Shown here: positions 73 through 22,287 of the stretch, piece by piece
Layout: each line of letters begins with the position of its first letter
Position numbering within the stretch: position 1 is the first letter of the stretch
Origin: Candidatus Cloacimonadota bacterium
GTDB lineage: Bacteria; Cloacimonadota; Cloacimonadia; Cloacimonadales; TCS61
Assembly: GCA_030445745.1 (NCBI GenBank)
Contig: JASUTE010000025.1
Coordinates: 1-22,287, forward strand
Direction of reading: 5' to 3'
DNA: 22,287 bases
The notes under the pieces: generated by a model
What the model saw: the letters and a program-made list of their open reading frames with translations, nothing else
What the model was told of the DNA's origin: nothing
Database searches by the model: none
Translations under genes and position numbers: made by a program

Positions 73-147
73 TACTTTCGTAATTTCACAGGACAGGTCT
101 TGATGAAATAGTTCTCTGAAATTTCACAGGACAGGTCTTGATGAAAT
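62..147 (+). repeat. 38-39 bp tandem repeat, about 2.3 copies
   Basis: Unit 1 spans 62-100 (39 bp), unit 2 spans 101-138 (38 bp), and a partial third copy starts at 139. Each unit starts TGATGAAAT and ends TTTCACAGGACAGGTCT. The 28 bp block at 82-109 recurs exactly at 120-147, and each block is bounded by ATTTCA and TGAAAT, a 6 bp inverted repeat. The first unit begins on the last codons of the upstream gene, so the Leu-Met-Lys-stop end is recreated at 100-111 in the same frame. Confidence 0.85.
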
Positions 148-14412: not shown

Positions 14413-15561
14413 TTGAAAAAACTACCAGTTACGTTTGAAACAATTACACCCTTGTTTACTGGGGACTGTAACCAAGAAATGACAGAGATAAAACCAACCT
14501 CAATTATGGGATCGCTTCGCCTTTGGTTTGAAGTAATCTGCCATTTTTCAGGCAAATTCAATAACGAAGCATACTCAAAAAATGAGTTAAATGCCAAAGA
14601 ATTTAAAGGCTTTATAAAAGAGAAGCCTGATACAACCAGTGAAGAAATTCAAAAAGAATTTAAATTATCACCCACAGCTTTCTATTTCGGTTGCACCGGC
14701 TGGAAAAGCCGGATCGGGATTGAGAAAATTCATGCAAGCGAAGAATCTAATTTGGGAAACTTCTTAAGTAATCCAGAGGTTATCTATTTTGATAAATATG
14801 TGACAAATCCAATTTGGAAGGAATGTAGTTTAAAAGACTATAAAAGAAAGGACAAAAGAGAAAAACAGAAATTGTCCTCTTGGTTTCTTCCTAATCAATA
14901 TTTCTGTGGTAAATTTGAAATTACCTTTTCTCTCCCAGATAAATCTCTCAAAGAAAATATCCTTTTTCCGGTTCTAAGCTTTATTCAGGAATATGGTTTT
15001 CTGGGTGGAAAAAATAATTTGGGTTATGGAAGAGTGAAAATACTTAATCCGAGTTTCACTAATAAAGAGATGATTATTCTTAGGAAGAAAATTGATTATA
15101 CAGCATTGATACGGTCAAAGCAACTAAAAGAAAGCGAAATGGTGAACTATAGTTCTGATAAAATGGAAGTGTTATGGTTACAAGAAGTTATTGAGAAAAC
15201 ACATAAACATCAAAAATATTATAAAATAGATAATCCTTTTTGTTCTTTTATAGAAAATTATGAGAAAGAAAACTTTAATCTTAAAGACGAACAACCTAAA
15301 CTTACTTATCAAGATTCTATCAAATGTCTTTTGCTGATAAAGTCTAAAATGAGAAGTAGGATTAAGTTCTCAAAAAAACGTCACTTCTACTTTGGTTCTA
15401 TTAAGAAAGAAAACTATTACGAGTATATCAAATCAAAAAAATATGAAGTAACTGGACCCAACGCCACCAAAATCATCCCTTTAATTAGGGAAAATAAACG
15501 AGGATTTCTCGCTATCCCGGGAATTATTGAAATGGAGGAAACAATCAATGAAAAACAATAA
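14413..15561 (+). CDS. cmr1: Cmr1, RAMP (Cas7-like) subunit of a type III CRISPR effector
   Basis: The protein has 382 aa from a TTG start. The N-terminus shows the Cmr1 pattern: TITPLFTGD (10-18), then the motif with Lys-Pro-Thr-Ser-Ile-x-Gly-Ser-Leu-Arg-x-Trp (27-38). The glycine-rich RAMP loop GFLGGKNNLGYGRV lies at 195-208. In Cmr complexes Cmr1 caps the head end near the crRNA 3' side and target entry. The C-terminal third (about 215-382) is Lys/Glu/Asn-rich and less recognisable. Its 3' end overlaps the next gene by 14 bp. It opens the six-gene effector operon. Confidence 0.85.
   Translation: MKKLPVTFETITPLFTGDCNQEMTEIKPTSIMGSLRLWFEVICHFSGKFNNEAYSKNELNAKEFKGFIKEKPDTTSEEIQKEFKLSPTAFYFGCTGWKSRIGIEKIHASEESNLGNFLSNPEVIYFDKYVTNPIWKECSLKDYKRKDKREKQKLSSWFLPNQYFCGKFEITFSLPDKSLKENILFPVLSFIQEYGFLGGKNNLGYGRVKILNPSFTNKEMIILRKKIDYTALIRSKQLKESEMVNYSSDKMEVLWLQEVIEKTHKHQKYYKIDNPFCSFIENYEKENFNLKDEQPKLTYQDSIKCLLLIKSKMRSRIKFSKKRHFYFGSIKKENYYEYIKSKKYEVTGPNATKIIPLIRENKRGFLAIPGIIEMEETINEKQ
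15534..15538 (+). promoter_or_regulatory. Ribosome binding site that fixes the cmr6 start
   Basis: GGAGG, 9 nt before ATG at 15548 and inside the end of cmr1. An in-frame start at 15527 would precede this site, lacks its own and adds seven non-conserved residues, so 15548 is preferred. Confidence 0.65.
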
Positions 15562-16597
15562 ATATGAATTATCTATGATTAATTTTGAAGATATCAAAAC
15601 TGAGTTTGAGGCAATTGATTATTTTCATTATTGCAAACAGAAGAATTCCGATATACCAGAACAGAGAAAATATCTCATTCCTAATTGTTCAAAAAAATGG
15701 TTCAAAAACAATAATTTATTACGTTTAAGATATAATAAAAAAGCAGAAAGACAGTCTGGTCTTTTTTCAGATAAAAAGAAAATTAAGGATTATCTGAAGA
15801 CTTTGATTCCCTCTAGTTTCGCTGTTAATGGGAAATTTACATTAGCTTCTCCCTATTATTCAGCTGATGATGAAAAATACTCCATTTTTGATAATCCGCT
15901 GCTGAAAGAGAAAGTCTTCAAAGTACCGATGATGAGAGGTAGCAGTTGGAAAGGAGTAATAGCTTCTGCAGCCAGGGCAGTATTAGAACAAGAATTTTCT
16001 GTTGAAAATATTCTCAGTTTCGGCAGGTTATTTGGTTCTGGTTCGGAAGACTTCAGAAAAATTGAAAAAAAGGCTATCACACAGAATTATACATCGGGCT
16101 TTGAAAAAGACCTTCTTTATTATGCTTTAATGAAGTTTGGAAAAGTTACAGTGAAAAAAATGAATACTGAAGAGCAAAAAAAGGAACTTTGGAATAAAAT
16201 TAAAGAGAAAAAACTGCAAACCCAACGTGGTCGCCTTGTTTTTTATCCCAGCTATTTTAACCAAATCGGGCTGGAGATGATAAACCCCCACAAACGCAGA
16301 ACCAAAGCAGGTACTCATCCGATTTATTACGAAGTTGTGCCTGCCGGTGCTGAAGCAACATTCCAACTGCTTTATATTCCTGCTGATAACATTACTAAAT
16401 CTGATGAGGAAAGAAAAAAAGAATACGAGCATGATAAAAAGCTTATAACTACTGCTCTGAAGTTGATATTTCAGGAGCATGAAGATAAAGCTCAAATCAA
16501 AATCGGTGCTAAAACCAAACTGGGATGGGGTCGAATTACACCTATTTCTGATGATGACTTTAATAAGATGATAGTGGAGGTAAAAGATGAGCAATAA
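15548..16597 (+). CDS. cmr6: Cmr6-like RAMP subunit of the type III effector
   Basis: The protein has 349 aa. The assignment to Cmr6 (a Cas7-like RAMP) rests on these features in order: VPMMRGSSWKGVIASAAR (127-144, the RAMP entry loop), GRLVFYPSYF (228-237), and LEMINPHKRR (242-251), which matches the Cmr6 motif Asp-x-Met-Asn-Pro-His. Then come HPIYYEVVPAGAEATFQLLY and the closing glycine-rich loop IGAKTKLGWGRI (319-330). The first 90 residues are an N-terminal part I do not recognise. Known Cmr6 sits at the head of the complex beside Cmr1. Here the two genes are adjacent and overlap, consistent with that pairing. Its 3' end overlaps cas10 by 11 bp. It could be a subtype III-C variant of Cmr6. 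Confidence 0.75.
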   Translation: MKNNKYELSMINFEDIKTEFEAIDYFHYCKQKNSDIPEQRKYLIPNCSKKWFKNNNLLRLRYNKKAERQSGLFSDKKKIKDYLKTLIPSSFAVNGKFTLASPYYSADDEKYSIFDNPLLKEKVFKVPMMRGSSWKGVIASAARAVLEQEFSVENILSFGRLFGSGSEDFRKIEKKAITQNYTSGFEKDLLYYALMKFGKVTVKKMNTEEQKKELWNKIKEKKLQTQRGRLVFYPSYFNQIGLEMINPHKRRTKAGTHPIYYEVVPAGAEATFQLLYIPADNITKSDEERKKEYEHDKKLITTALKLIFQEHEDKAQIKIGAKTKLGWGRITPISDDDFNKMIVEVKDEQ

Positions 16598-19500
16598 TAT
16601 TGATGCATTAACTACCCATCGAGATGACCTGCTGAAAGCGGAAATAGCAATATATTTTATTCTGCTGGATAAAACCAATATCAATTTTTGGAAAGGGAAA
16701 GGATATTTTGATGGTTTAGAAAAAGTTAATTTCTCATTTGATGACTTTTTAAATACTTTCTTTTTAAAGAATCATAAAATTGATTTCTTTGATGACAATA
16801 ATCAATTGAAAAGTTATAATCTAATAGATGATTTGCTGAAAAATTGGCGGTCAGCTCAAGAACCATTACAGAAAATTTTAGCTCGTGGCTGCGAAAATGT
16901 AAATTCCGGCATCGATAAAGGAGCTTTACCAGATTCTCAACGAATAAAAGGCAAACTCTACATCTCCAATGCTTTTGGTTCTTTTATGCAGAAGATGGAT
17001 CATGATTATTTAGATAAACGCCGTGAATGTTTTTTGCAACGTCTTCATAATGAACTTTCTCAAAAAGATTTTTATGCTAATCCAAATTGGCAGGAGATTA
17101 GAAATTTTGTCTCTAATGAAATCAAGTGCTGGTATTCCAATCTATTGAGTGATAGCCGTTTCCCGGCAAATGATGTAACTCTTTGGGATCAAGCTTATAT
17201 GACAGCTTCTATGTTTAAAGCAACTTTAGCCGATTGTTATCTGCAAAATAACGCTACATATAAAATTAAAAATCCCCAATTAATCCAATGGCGAATATTG
17301 GGAATCCAATATGATAAACTTAGTTTAGCAGAAAAAGCGAGCAAACCAGCTATAATTGCAGCTTACCGCGATGAATGCCGAATATTTGATAAACAGGTGA
17401 AAGCATATCTGGAAAAAGAAATTGCCTTGGGAAATGAAATCTATCGGGATGAAACCGGAATCTATTTTCTGGTTCCTGAATCTTTGCCTATAAAAACATA
17501 TGATACTGGAGTTTCTATTGATTTACTCAAAGAAGAAAGCATAATAAATGAGATTAACCAAAAGGCTTATGATATCTTCCATAATGAAGTCCAGCCGGTA
17601 TATGTTTTATCAAAAGCCTCGCGGGGAACAATGAATCTGACTCAACTTCTGGAACATGCCCCAGAACTTCGTTTATATGCTCCACGATTTGATCAGCGAG
17701 AATTTAAAAATAATTTACGCAGTTCGCAGATTTGCCGGGTTTGTAGAGTCAGGTTTGCTAACAATCAAAACAATAAAGAAAAAGAGAACAATGAAATCCC
17801 TTTATGTGAAACTTGTAAAAAACGAAAAATAAATAGACTGAATACTTGGAATACTAACCGCAATGAAGAAACCATCTGGTTGGGTGAATTGCAAGACAAG
17901 AACAGCCGCATAGCTTTACTTACCATTCGCTTTGAACTCAAGCAATGGCTGAATGGAAATATGCTGAGTAGTTTGTTGAATAGGAAGGAAAAGTTTGATG
18001 AAGAAGTTGAAAATCTTAAAAGTATTATATTGTCTATTCGAGATTATCAAAATAGATTTGAACAAAGAGATAATAAAAACCTTTTAGAATTCATAGCATT
18101 TTATGAAAATAATAAAGCTCCAGTTGAGCAATATCTTAACCTGTTCGATGAAAAGGGTATAAAAAAGCAATTTAAAAAAGTAATTGATAAATCAGAGAAT
18201 CTTCTAAATAATCAGAAGTTAAATGACGAAGATAGAAATATAATTAATCTTCTAAATCGTTTTTGGAAGAAATTTTTTAGATGTAATTTTTCTCTTTTGA
18301 AAGAAAAAAAAGACGGTAAGGTAGTTAATAAAAATGATAAAACTGTGCTTGATCAATCTAACTTTAAGCTAAATAAAGATAGTTACAAACGTTTTAAAAA
18401 CTATTATCAATCCGATGGAAAAAAACTAACTTTTAAAGATATTTTCGCATTTAGCTTTTTAACAAATAATGTTATTGGTGGTCTTATTCTTGATCGCTCA
18501 AACGGAACAACCTGGCAAAAGCTGATAAAAGAAAAAATCGGGATTGTAGATTCTATTGATTGGGCAAATCTAACAGATAAGCAAATTGACGAGATGTCAT
18601 CCATCCTCATTCAGTTCCTGCTTCGTAAAAATCCTTCGCCGGCTCGTTTACGCCGTATTTGGGAATCGACACAGAGATTTACAAATGAAATTAAAGCCGA
18701 TATTGCCAATAATCTTTCTGCCAAAAGAATTGTATGGGATGTGACAAAGGGGGAAGGATCATATCAAAATAATGAAATAGAAATTAACGGATTGTTATTC
18801 TATCTCTATGAAGGTAAAGCCTTCTTAATTACCAGTCTTGCCAGTTGTTTCAAGCAAATCTATAATTTTAAAAATAAAGAAATCAAGAATTTCGCAGACT
18901 GGATAAAAAGCGAGAATTATGAGATTTCAGATTTTGAACTACCTGAAAAAATTGAAATAGATGAAAATGAAATTGAAATAAGCAATCCTCAATTTGAGAA
19001 TTTCCAATCCTATGTTTCTCTACTTGATCCAACCCCAATTTCCTGGCAGGTGGCAGTTCCGGCAGATAAAGTTCCTAAACTAATTAAAATGATTCAGGAA
19101 AAATACAAAAAGCATTTTCATTATGTATATGGCAAACTTCCTCTGCATATTGGCGTTGTTGTGCAAAATTTCAAACATCCGCTTTATATCGGATTGCAGG
19201 CACTAAGAAACATCAGAAGAGAAGTGAGATGGGAAGATATTAAGTCTGATATTGATGGAATTCGTTTAAAGGCAATCCAAAAAGATCAAGTTACGACATC
19301 AACATCTGAAGAAATCGCAAATTGTGCTGAAACCTATTATTCATTTTTTATCAGGAAAGATACAAAAGGTGATTATCAATTCTATTTCCCACCGGAAAAA
19401 GTTAGTAAACATTTATCTCTAACCAATGAAACTGGAAAAGGGGATATTTTCTTCTATTATCCTAACACGATTGATTTTGAATTTCTGGATTGTAACACCA

Positions 19501-19886
19501 GAAGAAATGACATCTTCTATGAAAAAGGGAAAAGAAAGCCGGAGCATCGTCAACAACGTCCGCTCACTTGGGAGCATTGGTATAAATACACATGTTTCAG
19601 AGAGTTATTTGCAGATGATTCCTCAAAGCTTCATAATCTCATCTCTCTTTTTTATCGTTTGTTGCAAGACTGGAAAAATGAAGAGAAAAACATCCTGCAA
19701 TTAGCCGCAACTGCAATCATCAATATGCTACAACCCCAAAATATGAGTAACAGAAAAAAAGCAATTTTAGCCTGTTTGTTTGGAGCTGAAAAATGGAAAG
19801 ATATTAATGAAAAAATAGAAATAAAACATCTGCTGGAATTCGTTGATTATTATGATTTCTGGCACAATAACCTGAAGGAGGTTTAA
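16587..19886 (+). CDS. cas10: Cas10 large subunit, Csx11-like, with degenerate HD and cyclase motifs
   Basis: The protein has 1099 aa. It resembles the Csx11 branch of Cas10, the marker of subtype III-C. Supporting features are an N-terminal LLKAEIAIYF (15-24) and LWDQAYMTASMFKATLA (199-215). QWRILGIQYDK (234-244), GNEIYRDETGIYFLVPE (282-298) and a zinc site Cys383/386-Cys407/410 follow. Next are ETIWLGELQDKNSRIALLTI (428-447), PISWQVAVPADKVPKLI (817-833) and KLPLHIGVVVQ (850-860). The last two match the palm domain. No GGDD occurs anywhere in the protein; the hairpin positions read YRDETG and SLLDPTPIS instead. At the expected HD site the sequence is ILLDKT, with Leu27 for His, and the later YDH-like site reads WDQ. 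A charged Lys/Asn/Glu-rich insert spans about 465-615. The start has GGAGG 6 nt upstream. The C-terminus (about 990-1099) is helical, like the crRNA-handle-binding D4 part of Cas10. Confidence 0.85.
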   Translation: MSNNIDALTTHRDDLLKAEIAIYFILLDKTNINFWKGKGYFDGLEKVNFSFDDFLNTFFLKNHKIDFFDDNNQLKSYNLIDDLLKNWRSAQEPLQKILARGCENVNSGIDKGALPDSQRIKGKLYISNAFGSFMQKMDHDYLDKRRECFLQRLHNELSQKDFYANPNWQEIRNFVSNEIKCWYSNLLSDSRFPANDVTLWDQAYMTASMFKATLADCYLQNNATYKIKNPQLIQWRILGIQYDKLSLAEKASKPAIIAAYRDECRIFDKQVKAYLEKEIALGNEIYRDETGIYFLVPESLPIKTYDTGVSIDLLKEESIINEINQKAYDIFHNEVQPVYVLSKASRGTMNLTQLLEHAPELRLYAPRFDQREFKNNLRSSQICRVCRVRFANNQNNKEKENNEIPLCETCKKRKINRLNTWNTNRNEETIWLGELQDKNSRIALLTIRFELKQWLNGNMLSSLLNRKEKFDEEVENLKSIILSIRDYQNRFEQRDNKNLLEFIAFYENNKAPVEQYLNLFDEKGIKKQFKKVIDKSENLLNNQKLNDEDRNIINLLNRFWKKFFRCNFSLLKEKKDGKVVNKNDKTVLDQSNFKLNKDSYKRFKNYYQSDGKKLTFKDIFAFSFLTNNVIGGLILDRSNGTTWQKLIKEKIGIVDSIDWANLTDKQIDEMSSILIQFLLRKNPSPARLRRIWESTQRFTNEIKADIANNLSAKRIVWDVTKGEGSYQNNEIEINGLLFYLYEGKAFLITSLASCFKQIYNFKNKEIKNFADWIKSENYEISDFELPEKIEIDENEIEISNPQFENFQSYVSLLDPTPISWQVAVPADKVPKLIKMIQEKYKKHFHYVYGKLPLHIGVVVQNFKHPLYIGLQALRNIRREVRWEDIKSDIDGIRLKAIQKDQVTTSTSEEIANCAETYYSFFIRKDTKGDYQFYFPPEKVSKHLSLTNETGKGDIFFYYPNTIDFEFLDCNTRRNDIFYEKGKRKPEHRQQRPLTWEHWYKYTCFRELFADDSSKLHNLISLFYRLLQDWKNEEKNILQLAATAIINMLQPQNMSNRKKAILACLFGAEKWKDINEKIEIKHLLEFVDYYDFWHNNLKEV

Positions 19887-19889
19887 AAA

Positions 19890-20984
19890 ATGAATGATGT
19901 AAAATCAATCGAATTGATCACTAAAGCAACTGATCCGATTTATATCGGAACCGGCGGCTATACCATTGGCAGAGTGGATAACACTATCGTACGTGACCCG
20001 ATTTCCCACATCCCCAAAATTCCCGGCACTTCACTTGCCGGAACCTGGCGCTATTTTATGGCTTTGCAACTTCAGAGCTATTTTAAAGACGAATATCGCA
20101 GTGATAGAAAAAAGCGGGGAGAAGATTATCACAGTATCAAAGAAAAGCAAGAAAAAGATAATAAAAATGATATGAACATAAAGTTTCTTTTTTTTGATAA
20201 AAAGGAAGACGGATGGTGGAATTGTATAGATGGGAATAGATTTGCTGCCTTAAATTGTGCCGGGCAAGATGATTTTCCAAATATGAAGATTATGGAGGAT
20301 TTGAATGATGAAAAACCAAGACATTGCGGACAATGTATTGTTTGCAAATCTTTTGGCTTTTCAAAATCTGATAAATCAGCACAAGGGTTGCTCTCCTTTA
20401 CAGACCTGAATATTCTCTTCTTTCCTGTTTATACCAGAAAGGGAACAATGTGGATTACCAGTGAATCAATTTTGCAGGAAGGCGGTTTGATTCAATCGAA
20501 ACACGCCAAAGAAGAGGAGGCGATTTTTGTAAATGAGAATTTTGAAGGAGGAGATTTTCTGAATCTGGGCTGGATTAATCTGCCCATGAAGAAACAGAAT
20601 TTGACTTTTAAGATTCCTAATGGCTGTGAGCTAGCTTCCAACCAAATTGTTATTGTTCCCGATCATCTAATTTCGCAAATCATCAATTCCAATCTGGAAG
20701 TGCGAACTTCTGTCTCCATTGATCCCAATACCGGAGCAGCCAAAGATGGAGCCTTATTCACCAGCGAAGCGATTCCCCGTACAACTGTTTTTTATGGGAA
20801 GATTCATATCTTTGAAAGATCTGAACTAAATCATAAAAATATCTGCAATGCTCTTTGTGACAGCAAGCAATATTATGAGAGCTTGGGAATTGGCGGAATG
20901 ACAACCCGAGGTTTCGGCAGAATGAAAGTTCAATTAAATTGTATTGGAGGAAATGATGAAAAACATAGATGCTGCGATCAATAA
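19890..20984 (+). CDS. cmr4: Cmr4, backbone RAMP with the target-RNA cleavage residue
   Basis: The protein has 364 aa. Cmr4 (Cas7 group) subunits line the complex and cut target RNA at 6 nt intervals. Motifs in order are YIGTGGYTIGRVDNTIVRDP (18-37), IPGTSLAGTWRY (44-55), and AQGLLSFTDLNILFFPVYTR (164-183). VRTSVSIDPNTGAAKDGALF (271-290) follows, then the glycine-rich loop IGGMTTRGFGRMKV (334-347). Asp30 in GRVDN sits at the place of the catalytic aspartate of characterised Cmr4 proteins. Cys146, Cys149 and Cys152 (CGQCIVC) form an extra possible metal site in the middle. The start has AAGGAGG 7 nt upstream, inside the end of cas10. The 3' end overlaps cmr5. Confidence 0.88.
   Translation: MNDVKSIELITKATDPIYIGTGGYTIGRVDNTIVRDPISHIPKIPGTSLAGTWRYFMALQLQSYFKDEYRSDRKKRGEDYHSIKEKQEKDNKNDMNIKFLFFDKKEDGWWNCIDGNRFAALNCAGQDDFPNMKIMEDLNDEKPRHCGQCIVCKSFGFSKSDKSAQGLLSFTDLNILFFPVYTRKGTMWITSESILQEGGLIQSKHAKEEEAIFVNENFEGGDFLNLGWINLPMKKQNLTFKIPNGCELASNQIVIVPDHLISQIINSNLEVRTSVSIDPNTGAAKDGALFTSEAIPRTTVFYGKIHIFERSELNHKNICNALCDSKQYYESLGIGGMTTRGFGRMKVQLNCIGGNDEKHRCCDQ
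20946..20950 (+). promoter_or_regulatory. Ribosome binding site that fixes the cmr5 start
   Basis: GGAGG lies inside the 3' end of cmr4, 5 nt before ATG at 20956. An upstream in-frame TTG (20944) overlaps this site and so cannot use it, and ATG at 20953 would be too close. 20956 is the best start. Confidence 0.65.
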
Positions 20985-21291
20985 AGCAAGTTACACTCTG
21001 GCTGAAAATGCTGGTATAGAAAAGAAAAATGAAATTGAAAAAGCAATGGGCGTTCTGGCAAATGACGGAGTTTATGCTTTTGTGATATTTTGTAAATCAA
21101 ACAAAATTTGGAATGATTTTTCCGATTCTATTAAAGAACTGAATACTTTATTTCCTGAAAAGTTGCAAAATTTTGATGATTCTAAACTGAAGTCAGATAA
21201 TTATTCCCTTTCCGATCTACTTTTTGTGAAAGAAATTCTGGAAAAGATGCTTACTTACACTCGGTATCATCTTAAAGCAAAGGGAGATTGA
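20956..21291 (+). CDS. cmr5: Cmr5, small (Cas11) subunit
   Basis: The protein has 111 aa, typical for Cmr5 (about 110-170). It is all-helical in appearance. The diagnostic part is the central helix with Lys-Ala-Met-x-Val-Leu-x-Asn-Asp-Gly-Val-Tyr-Ala-Phe-Val-Ile-Phe-Cys-Lys-Ser-Asn, equivalent to the 'LPxMIxxNGLxxTLAFLKSK' stretch of the family. A C-terminal helix ends YTRYHLKAKGD. Cmr5 subunits stack along the minor filament opposite Cmr4 and bind target RNA. The gene overlaps cmr4 by 29 bp and leaves one base before the next gene. Confidence 0.82.
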   Translation: MKNIDAAINKASYTLAENAGIEKKNEIEKAMGVLANDGVYAFVIFCKSNKIWNDFSDSIKELNTLFPEKLQNFDDSKLKSDNYSLSDLLFVKEILEKMLTYTRYHLKAKGD

Positions 21292-21292
21292 T

Positions 21293-22120
21293 ATGGCGAA
21301 AAAATGGTATGAAGTGACCTTAAAGCCTTTGCAACCGCTTCATATAGGAAGCGGAAATTACGGCGTTGTAAATCCAACCAGGATTTTTATCCCAGGTTGG
21401 ACAATGTGGGGTGCGTTAACAGCTGCTTTTGGAAAACATATGGGTTGGAATAAAAACGATCTGAGTAAAGACCAAAATGAGCTTTTTGAACAAGTTTCCA
21501 ACTTCTACCCAGTAATTGATAGTAAAATACTCTTCCCAAATTTTAAAAACGGTGAATTTTGTTTGGGAGAATATTCTGAAAAGGTATTCCGTTATTATGC
21601 AACTGAAACTTTTGCTTCAACTGCTATTAATGCTTCCACGCAAACTGCTAAAGATAAAATGTTATATGAAATAGAGTATCTACTGCCTGTATTAAAAGAT
21701 AAAAAAAAGAAGATATTTTGGCAGGGAAGTTTGTTTGTTGATTTAGATCAATCTAAACTAGAAGAGTTCCTCAAAGAGTTCCTCAGGAGAGGAGAAATAT
21801 TATATATTGGCGGAGAACGAAGTAAAGGTTTTGGAATGATGGAAATTGAAATGATAACTGAACTGGAAAAACGAGAAGATTGGAGTAACCCAAACAGAAA
21901 GATTTTTACTAATTTTGTTAAAGATTCAGAATGGATTGAATATGGTAAAGCCACATATATTGCAGAAATCGAAAAATCAGACAGTTATGATTTAACTTTA
22001 AAAAAGTTGACAAAAATTTACTTACCGGGATGTAGAAAATCACCGAAAACTCCAGCAAACGGGAGATTGATAAAAGGTGTTTTAGTGAAATGCAAATTAG
22101 ATGATATTTTCCAAAACTAG
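21293..22120 (+). CDS. cmr3: Cas5-group RAMP, Cmr3-like (short)
   Basis: The protein has 275 aa. It opens with EVTLKPLQPLHIGSGNYG (7-24), a RAMP strand-loop, then FIPGWTMWGALTAAFGKHM (32-50). The stretch Ser-Thr-Ala-Ile-Asn-Ala-Ser-Thr-Gln-Thr-Ala-Lys-Asp-Lys-Met-Leu-Tyr (109-125) matches the Cas5-group pattern 'H/S-T-x-I-d-x-x-T-x-T-A-x-x-G-x-L-y'. It closes with the glycine-rich loop YIGGERSKGFGMMEIE (171-186). In type III complexes this group (Cmr3/Csm4/Csx10) binds the crRNA 5' handle and Cas10. Since the operon otherwise lacks Cmr3, I assign it that role. It is shorter than most Cmr3 proteins (often 300 or more). The 3' end may be affected by a frameshift. Csx10-like is the alternative name. 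Confidence 0.7.
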   Translation: MAKKWYEVTLKPLQPLHIGSGNYGVVNPTRIFIPGWTMWGALTAAFGKHMGWNKNDLSKDQNELFEQVSNFYPVIDSKILFPNFKNGEFCLGEYSEKVFRYYATETFASTAINASTQTAKDKMLYEIEYLLPVLKDKKKKIFWQGSLFVDLDQSKLEEFLKEFLRRGEILYIGGERSKGFGMMEIEMITELEKREDWSNPNRKIFTNFVKDSEWIEYGKATYIAEIEKSDSYDLTLKKLTKIYLPGCRKSPKTPANGRLIKGVLVKCKLDDIFQN

Positions 22121-22287
22121 GAGCAAATGTTTCTTTTGAGGATTCAGATTATAATAAGACAGTAAATTTAATTATCTCTAGTCTGAGCCAAAATTATTGA
22201 CAAAATTAGCAAGAATTGTTCTTTTACAGCCATATAGAGGTGTAAGAAAAGTCTGGGACCCAAAAATATTGGGAAAATCTGGTTTTC
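22121..22287 (+). other. Terminal 167 bp: no complete gene; possible start of another CDS
   Basis: A frame beginning at TTG 22197 stays open to the window edge. It would read TKLARIVLLQPYRGVRKVW and continue. No good ribosome site precedes it, and the TTGACA at 22197-22202 may instead be a -35 box. A second frame (22105-22200) continues past the cmr3-like stop for about 31 codons. No CRISPR repeat, terminator or RNA gene is visible. Confidence 0.25.

What the first reader, a model, noticed from the sequence alone, without database searches (positions are those of the whole stretch)
16587..19886. Csx11-like Cas10 that appears to have lost both its cyclase and its HD nuclease motifs
Seen: the 1099 aa protein has no GGDD. 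The palm-like hairpins read YRDETG (286-291) and SLLDPTPIS (811-819). The HD position reads ILLDKT (Leu27-Asp28), and the second conserved HD-domain site reads WDQ (200-202) instead of the usual Asp-His. Known: subtype III-C is defined by a Cas10 with an inactivated cyclase-like domain. Inference: this complex makes no cyclic oligoadenylate and probably has no Cas10 DNase, leaving Cmr4 as the only visible catalytic subunit. A type III system that relies on RNA cleavage alone, or on an unknown output, would be unusual. One HD dipeptide (His139-Asp140) exists but lies outside the usual hydrophobic-helix context.
Basis: partly seen in the sequence, partly recalled or inferred. Interest (0 to 1): 0.75.

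Follow-up and report, generated by a model that had tools for sequence, protein, structure and literature searches.

The report
CRISPR Cas10 lacking both active sites
This gene encodes a known kind of bacterial CRISPR defence protein (type III-C Cas10, Csx11) in which both usual enzyme centres are gone, a feature of a whole branch of the family rather than of this one gene, leaving target-RNA cutting by a partner protein as the only recognisable activity of the complex.

Summary
The 1099-aa protein is a full-length Csx11, the type III-C Cas10 (TIGR02682, E 2.8e-148), in an intact Cmr1-Cmr6-Cas10-Cmr4-Cmr5-Cmr3 operon. The palm2 GGDD reads T816-P817-I818-S819. His11 and His139 are not conserved. 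An AlphaFold2 model keeps the full Cas10 fold, HD domain included (HD alone: Z 12.0 to S. epidermidis Cas10, next unrelated chain 3.3). The loss is shared by a 15-sequence clade (support 100/100) spread over several phyla; the operon is under purifying selection and the Cmr4 catalytic Asp is kept. Published surveys already say that III-C lacks cyclase sites and that only half of III-C has a recognisable HD domain. Of 15 other clade genomes, 14 carry Cas3, and in three the III-C operon lies within or beside a type I-B locus. The window's genome has no detectable Cas1, Cas3, Cas6 or GAAAC-type array. Best reading: a Cas10 scaffold in an RNA-slicing III-C complex that borrows guides. Known kind; how such systems immunise is a published open question.

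The parts
14413..15561 (+). cmr1 (RAMP)
   Evidence: TIGR01894 E 2.9e-13; PADLOC Cmr1 E 8.2e-64
15551..16597 (+). cmr6 (RAMP); the mechanical ORF begins at a TTG at 15527, the in-frame ATG at 15551 is the likelier start
   Evidence: PADLOC Cmr6 E 1.1e-68
16587..19886 (+). cas10c / csx11, 1099 aa, HD and cyclase residues substituted
   Evidence: TIGR02682 495.9 bits against cut-off 248.95; PADLOC Cas10c E 9.5e-125; AlphaFold2 pLDDT 82.7, pTM 0.86; Cas10 structures Z up to 19.2
16587..17252 (+). HD domain without canonical metal ligands, residues 1-222 (I25-L26 for HD, E103 for Asp, Q202 for His)
   Evidence: model pLDDT 87; Csm1 HD domains Z 12.0, next unrelated 3.3; ligand table
17427..17477 (+). 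palm1 beta-hairpin region, residues 281-297 (contains YRDETG); Y286 and D288 invariant in the III-C set
   Evidence: alignments, DSSP of model
17733..17816 (+). zinc-finger cysteines C383, C386, C407, C410
   Evidence: each conserved in 33 or 34 of 34 III-C sequences
19017..19043 (+). palm2 hairpin SLLDPTPIS (811-819), GGDD replaced by TPIS
   Evidence: HMMER alignment to Cmr2 4w8y; family alignment
19890..20984 (+). cmr4, backbone RNase; catalytic Asp30 at 19977-19979
   Evidence: TIGR02580 105.9 bits; D30 aligns with Pyrococcus Cmr4 D26; codon checked
20950..21291 (+). cmr5 small subunit, III-C type (mechanical ORF starts at TTG 20944)
   Evidence: PADLOC Cmr5 CAS-III-C E 6.7e-26
21293..22120 (+). 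cmr3 (Cas5-like)
   Evidence: PADLOC Cmr3 E 8.1e-54

Best explanation
The protein is the large subunit of a type III-C (Cmr-like) effector complex. Its HD and palm domains keep their folds but have lost the residues that hold metal and ATP, so it most likely acts as a scaffold that caps the complex at the 5' end of the guide, meets the flank of the target RNA and holds the other subunits. The only intrinsic chemistry left is cutting of guide-matched RNA by the Cmr4 backbone (Asp30). In most relatives the guides probably come from, and DNA destruction is left to, a co-resident type I system with Cas3. The III-C complex would then silence or clear invader transcripts. Shown: family, fold, substitutions, clade-wide conservation, purifying selection, retained Cmr4 Asp. 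Inferred: lack of activity, scaffold role, RNA-silencing output, shared guides.
For: Full-length Csx11. Both active sites substituted at mapped positions. Whole-length Cas10 fold including the HD domain. A 15-member HD-less clade with support 100/100. dN/dS 0.13-0.30 for all six genes against the L003 operon, Cmr4 the most constrained, no internal stops. Cmr4 Asp conserved in every complete clade Cmr4. No conserved extra gene among neighbours beyond the six core genes and type I/adaptation genes. Cas3 over cut-off in 14 of 15 relatives; III-C operon within or next to a I-B locus in L003, L007 and L009, with repeats in L003 and L007. Literature: cyclase sites absent from III-C and no known effectors for that subtype (PMC11229360).
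Against: In Pyrococcus III-B the double HD/palm mutant of Cmr2 lost anti-plasmid immunity (PMC7192623), although the double mutant complex still cut target RNA in vitro, so RNA slicing alone may not protect. The window's own genome has no detectable Cas1, Cas3, Cas6 or GAAAC-type array, so a source of guides is not shown here. Cas3 co-occurrence may only reflect that both are CRISPR systems. No biochemical data were found for this clade.
Confidence: 0.68

Rival explanations
1. The complex recruits an unknown effector in trans (for example the type I Cas3 or a host nuclease) once it binds target RNA, so that Cas10 is a switchable docking platform and not only a scaffold.
For: Strong conservation of motifs such as SDSRFPxNDVTLWDQAYMTASMFKA and GCENxNSGIDKG in a domain without canonical catalytic residues; Cas3 in 14 of 15 clade genomes; III-C genes interleaved with I-B genes in L003 and L007.
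Against: The window's genome has no Cas3 over cut-off; no extra gene is conserved in the operons; the conservation may be structural.
Confidence: 0.14
2. The HD domain keeps a non-canonical metal site built from Glu103, Asp201, the Asp189 and Asp196 region and, in most relatives, His31, and is still a nuclease.
For: Glu103 is invariant in the clade and conservative for Asp; 9 of 13 clade members with that region read GKTH with His31; the W(D/E)Q motif is fixed.
Against: The HD dipeptide and the motif I His are all lost; the window and L003 have also lost His31 and the glycine after HD, as if this motif were decaying further.
Confidence: 0.07
3. The cyclase activity moved from palm2 to palm1, whose hairpin carries the invariant Y286-x-D288 and, in this clade, E289.
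For: Y286 and D288 are present in all 34 III-C sequences; palm2 lacks GGDD; palm1 of the Cmr2/Csm1-type sequences fetched here shows a glycine-rich turn without this Asp.
Against: Counting from the conserved Pro, D288-E289 occupy the GG positions and not the DD positions of GGDD; the model places a two-residue turn there; no conserved gene able to sense a nucleotide was found beside these operons.
Confidence: 0.04
4. In this genome the operon is a decaying, non-functional remnant.
For: No Cas1, Cas3, Cas6 or GAAAC-type array detected in a 99.3% complete genome; the HD motif is further eroded in the two Cloacimonadota sequences.
Against: Six intact genes, dN/dS 0.13-0.30, Cmr4 84% identical to L003. 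The contig ends 167 bases after cmr3, where L003 has cas2 and an array, so an array may simply be unassembled.
Confidence: 0.07

Closest known systems
Csx11 / Cas10c of CRISPR-Cas subtype III-C (TIGR02682; PADLOC PDLC01314, PDLC00918)
   Same: Full-length match; operon of Cmr1, Cmr6, Cas10, Cmr4, Cmr5, Cmr3 in the same order as in the annotated Anabaena III-C locus; cyclase residues lost
   Different: Belongs to an HD-less sub-branch (CEN, WDQ); HD-positive III-C members keep LLHDIGK, an Asp at position 103 and WDH; the turn of the palm2 hairpin is one residue longer in this clade
Cmr2 of subtype III-B (Pyrococcus furiosus, 4w8y, 3w2w)
   Same: Palm1, zinc finger, palm2 and C-terminal architecture; palm2 aligned by sequence, the rest by structure (Z 19.2, rmsd 4.1, 419 residues)
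   Different: Cmr2 has GGDD and an active HD (PMC7192623)
Csm1 of subtype III-A (S. epidermidis, L. lactis, E. italicus)
   Same: HD domain fold (Z 12.0, rmsd 3.2, 163 residues) and whole-length fold (Z about 18.6, 570-580 residues)
   Different: Csm1 has HD nuclease and cyclase active sites (established knowledge); this protein has neither set of residues
[quoted passage not shown]
   Same: Reductive loss of signalling in type III (PMC12669027)
   Different: Separate subtypes with other effector gene sets; not tested by alignment here

Membership tests
Csx11 / type III-C Cas10 | Match to the curated Csx11 model over its whole length above cut-off | tested here: met
   TIGR02682 495.9 bits against 248.95, model 2-1004 of 1007
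Csx11 / type III-C Cas10 | Cyclase-like palm without GGDD | tested here: met
   TPIS at the GGDD position
Csx11 / type III-C Cas10 | Operon with Cmr-type subunits (Cmr1, 3, 4, 5, 6) | tested here: met
   same order in relatives
Csx11 / type III-C Cas10 | Associated adaptation genes or CRISPR array (variable in III-C, not defining) | tested here: inconclusive
   No Cas1, Cas6, Cas3 over cut-off or GAAAC-type array found in the genome, but the genome is a draft in 38 contigs and other repeat types were not searched; most III-C loci lack arrays (PMC12669027)
Active Cas10 HD nuclease | His-Asp dipeptide, second Asp, and C-terminal His of the permuted HD domain | tested here: not met
   I25-L26, E103, Q202; fold kept; permuted His described in PMC7689449
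Active Cas10 cyclase | GGDD in palm2 | tested here: not met
Active Cas7/Cmr4 backbone RNase | Catalytic Asp equivalent to Pyrococcus Cmr4 D26 | tested here: met
   D30 aligned with D26
Active type III effector complex | RNA cleavage, DNase or cOA activity in vitro | not testable with these tools
   needs purified complex

The most novel reading that the evidence does not exclude
A naturally selected, widely transferred branch of type III CRISPR gives immunity with a Cas10 that has neither activity, either by RNA slicing alone or by switching on an unknown partner through the conserved but non-catalytic HD domain. The published III-B double mutant of this kind is not immune, so this branch would need an output not yet described.
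Probability: 0.3. Interest if true: 0.7.

Novelty: new member of a known kind. Interest (0 to 1): 0.38.

Why it matters
How type III systems without DNase and without cyclic oligoadenylate protect a cell is an open question stated in print (PMC7192623). This clade is a clean natural test: both sites are gone by descent, the folds and the Cmr4 active site are kept, and the operon is compact and under selection. If it protects cells, RNA slicing alone or an unknown partner must suffice. In either case the gene itself is an expected kind of III-C Cas10.

Tried and rejected
1) A hidden metal cluster around His11 or His139: neither is conserved. 2) A further effector gene: clustering of 600 neighbouring ORFs from the fetched loci gave only the six core genes, genes read as Cas6, Cas3, Cas4, Cas1 and Cas2, and scattered neighbours; a few repeated non-core clusters (7, 8, 10, 24) occur in only 2 to 5 loci and were not annotated. 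3) Direct phmmer of the protein against the PDB found nothing meaningful; the family profile was needed. 4) Phage records: no match; plasmids: three III-C relatives, in Anabaena, Sphaerospermopsis and Thermus. 5) CRISPR array in the own genome by a spaced TTGAAAC pattern: one hit, no more than the reversed control; other repeat types were not excluded. 8) Foldseek with the HD domain alone gave only weak matches (best E 0.81, Csm1); the VIA alignment of its candidates resolved it. 9) A first dN/dS script failed on a file name and was repeated.

Full report
What was claimed. A 1099-aa Csx11-like Cas10 at 16587-19886 without GGDD and without a usable HD motif, leaving Cmr4 as the only catalytic subunit.

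The gene and its operon. The ORF is intact and matches the curated Csx11 model from end to end (495.9 bits, cut-off 248.95) and the PADLOC III-C Cas10 models. It sits in a compact + strand operon: Cmr1 14413-15561, Cmr6 to 16597, Cas10 16587-19886, Cmr4 19890-20984, Cmr5 to 21291, Cmr3 21293-22120. The contig ends at 22287, 167 bases after cmr3.

Palm domains. A profile of 33 relatives finds Pyrococcus Cmr2 (E 0.0025) and aligns its AILPVDKALEVAYKI segment with VAVPADKVPKLIKMI. Counting back across the hairpin, GGDD falls on T816-P817-I818-S819. No III-C member in the set has GGDD there. The palm1 hairpin is YRDETG; Y286 and D288 are invariant in all 34 sequences, but by the same counting D288-E289 fall on the GG and not on the DD positions, and the model shows a two-residue turn between strands 283-288 and 291-297.

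HD domain. HD-positive III-C relatives (L048, L050, L052, L068) read L(L)HDIGK, then an Asp at the position of window residue 103, then WDH. [quoted passage not shown] In the window these positions are I25-L26, E103 and Q202. H11 varies among relatives and H139 is unique to the window.

Structure. AlphaFold2 with 31 sequences gave pLDDT 82.7 and pTM 0.86. The model aligns along its whole length with Cas10 of III-A and III-B (Z about 18.6 over 572-582 residues; 3w2w Z 19.2 over 419). The HD domain predicted alone (pLDDT 87) matches Csm1 HD domains with Z 12.0 at rmsd 3.2 over 163 residues, and the next unrelated chain has Z 3.3. So the HD fold is predicted to be present and only its metal-binding residues are gone. 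Coordinates could not be superposed residue by residue here.

Evolution. The tree of 33 III-C Cas10 proteins puts all 15 sequences with WDQ or WEQ and no HD on one side of a branch with support 100/100 and length 1.58. Those with a named origin come from Cloacimonadota, Bacillota, Fidelibacterota, Minisyncoccota and Caldifarciminota, and a frame-broken copy from a Hydrogenothermaceae MAG shows the same N-terminal and downstream motifs, which implies transfer between phyla. Most members read LLFNLGKTH where HD-positive ones read LLHDIGK; the two Cloacimonadota sequences read FILLDKTN and FILMDKTN, a further erosion. Against the L003 operon all six genes have dN/dS of 0.13-0.30, Cmr4 lowest (0.127), and no internal stops (simple Nei-Gojobori estimate). 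Outside this clade and the HD-positive group, 15 further sequences keep the first His, have His instead of the second Asp, and lack the C-terminal His in all cases, so strict completeness of the canonical set in this sample is 4 of 34. The sample is small and not random, and alternative ligands in those 15 were not examined.

Catalysis left. Cmr4 D30 aligns with Pyrococcus Cmr4 D26, whose D26N mutation abolishes target RNA cleavage (PMC7192623). The GRVDNTIVRD motif is present in every complete Cmr4 of the clade.

Genomic setting. In relatives the III-C operon can lie with type I-B-like genes: L003 has cas3, cas4 and cas1 upstream, cas2 and a 49-copy repeat array downstream; L007 has cas3 before and cas1-cas2 and repeats after; L009 has a Cas6-like gene before and cas3-cas4-cas1-cas2 after (gene names by clustering and sequence inspection). 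Cas3 passes its cut-off in 14 of 15 other clade genomes, against 6 of 14 control genomes (Fisher p 0.005; not corrected for CRISPR carriage in general). Cas1 was found in 9 of 10 tested relatives. The window's genome, 99.3% complete, has neither Cas1, Cas6, Cas3 over cut-off, nor a GAAAC-type array. It was not searched for CARF effectors.

What is known. Csx11 was described as an inactivated Cas10 in 2011 (PMC3150331). The 2024 survey states that cyclase sites are absent from III-C, that this goes with a lack of known effectors, and that half of III-C has a recognisable HD domain (PMC11229360). The 2025 classification lists III-C among subtypes with an inactivated cyclase domain (PMC12669027). 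[quoted passage not shown]

Verdict. The protein is an ordinary member of an HD-less III-C branch. The added information is that the branch is monophyletic in this sample, widely transferred, structurally intact by prediction and under selection, and that this genome holds it without detectable partner CRISPR genes.

Noticed in passing
L003 1854-18800; L007 3780-16154; L009 5240-21038: The HD-less III-C operon is within or directly beside a type I-B-like locus (cas3, cas4, cas1, cas2); L003 carries a repeat array of 49 copies of GTATTAATCAGTCCTATGAGGAATTGAAAC.
   Followed up: partly
window 22121-22287: The contig ends 167 bases after cmr3; in L003 cas2 and a CRISPR array follow at this point, so the window's genome may have an unassembled array here.
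   Followed up: partly
G124 (Thermosyntropha) contigs C23 and C89; loci L055 and L004: One genome carries two different III-C operons of the HD-less clade.
   Followed up: no
L011 9947-13523; L012 9980-13349: The cas10c frame is broken in a Hydrogenothermaceae MAG and in Thermoanaerobacter thermocopriae; sequencing error or pseudogene not decided.
   Followed up: no
L046 7017-17077: III-C locus on a Thermus thermophilus plasmid interrupted by IS3 and IS701 family transposases.
   Followed up: no
L045 9119-16724: III-C operon, with LHD but without the C-terminal His of the HD domain, on a conjugative plasmid of Anabaena cylindrica.
   Followed up: partly
III-C relatives outside the clade and the HD-positive group (L045, L047, L056-L067, L069): In 15 of 15 the residue at window position 103 (Asp in HD-positive members) is His, and in 7 a second His sits at position 107, which could be a differently built metal site.
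   Followed up: no
window 82-147: Two exact copies of the 28-nt AATTTCACAGGACAGGTCTTGATGAAAT, 38 bases apart start to start, upstream of the first gene.
   Followed up: no
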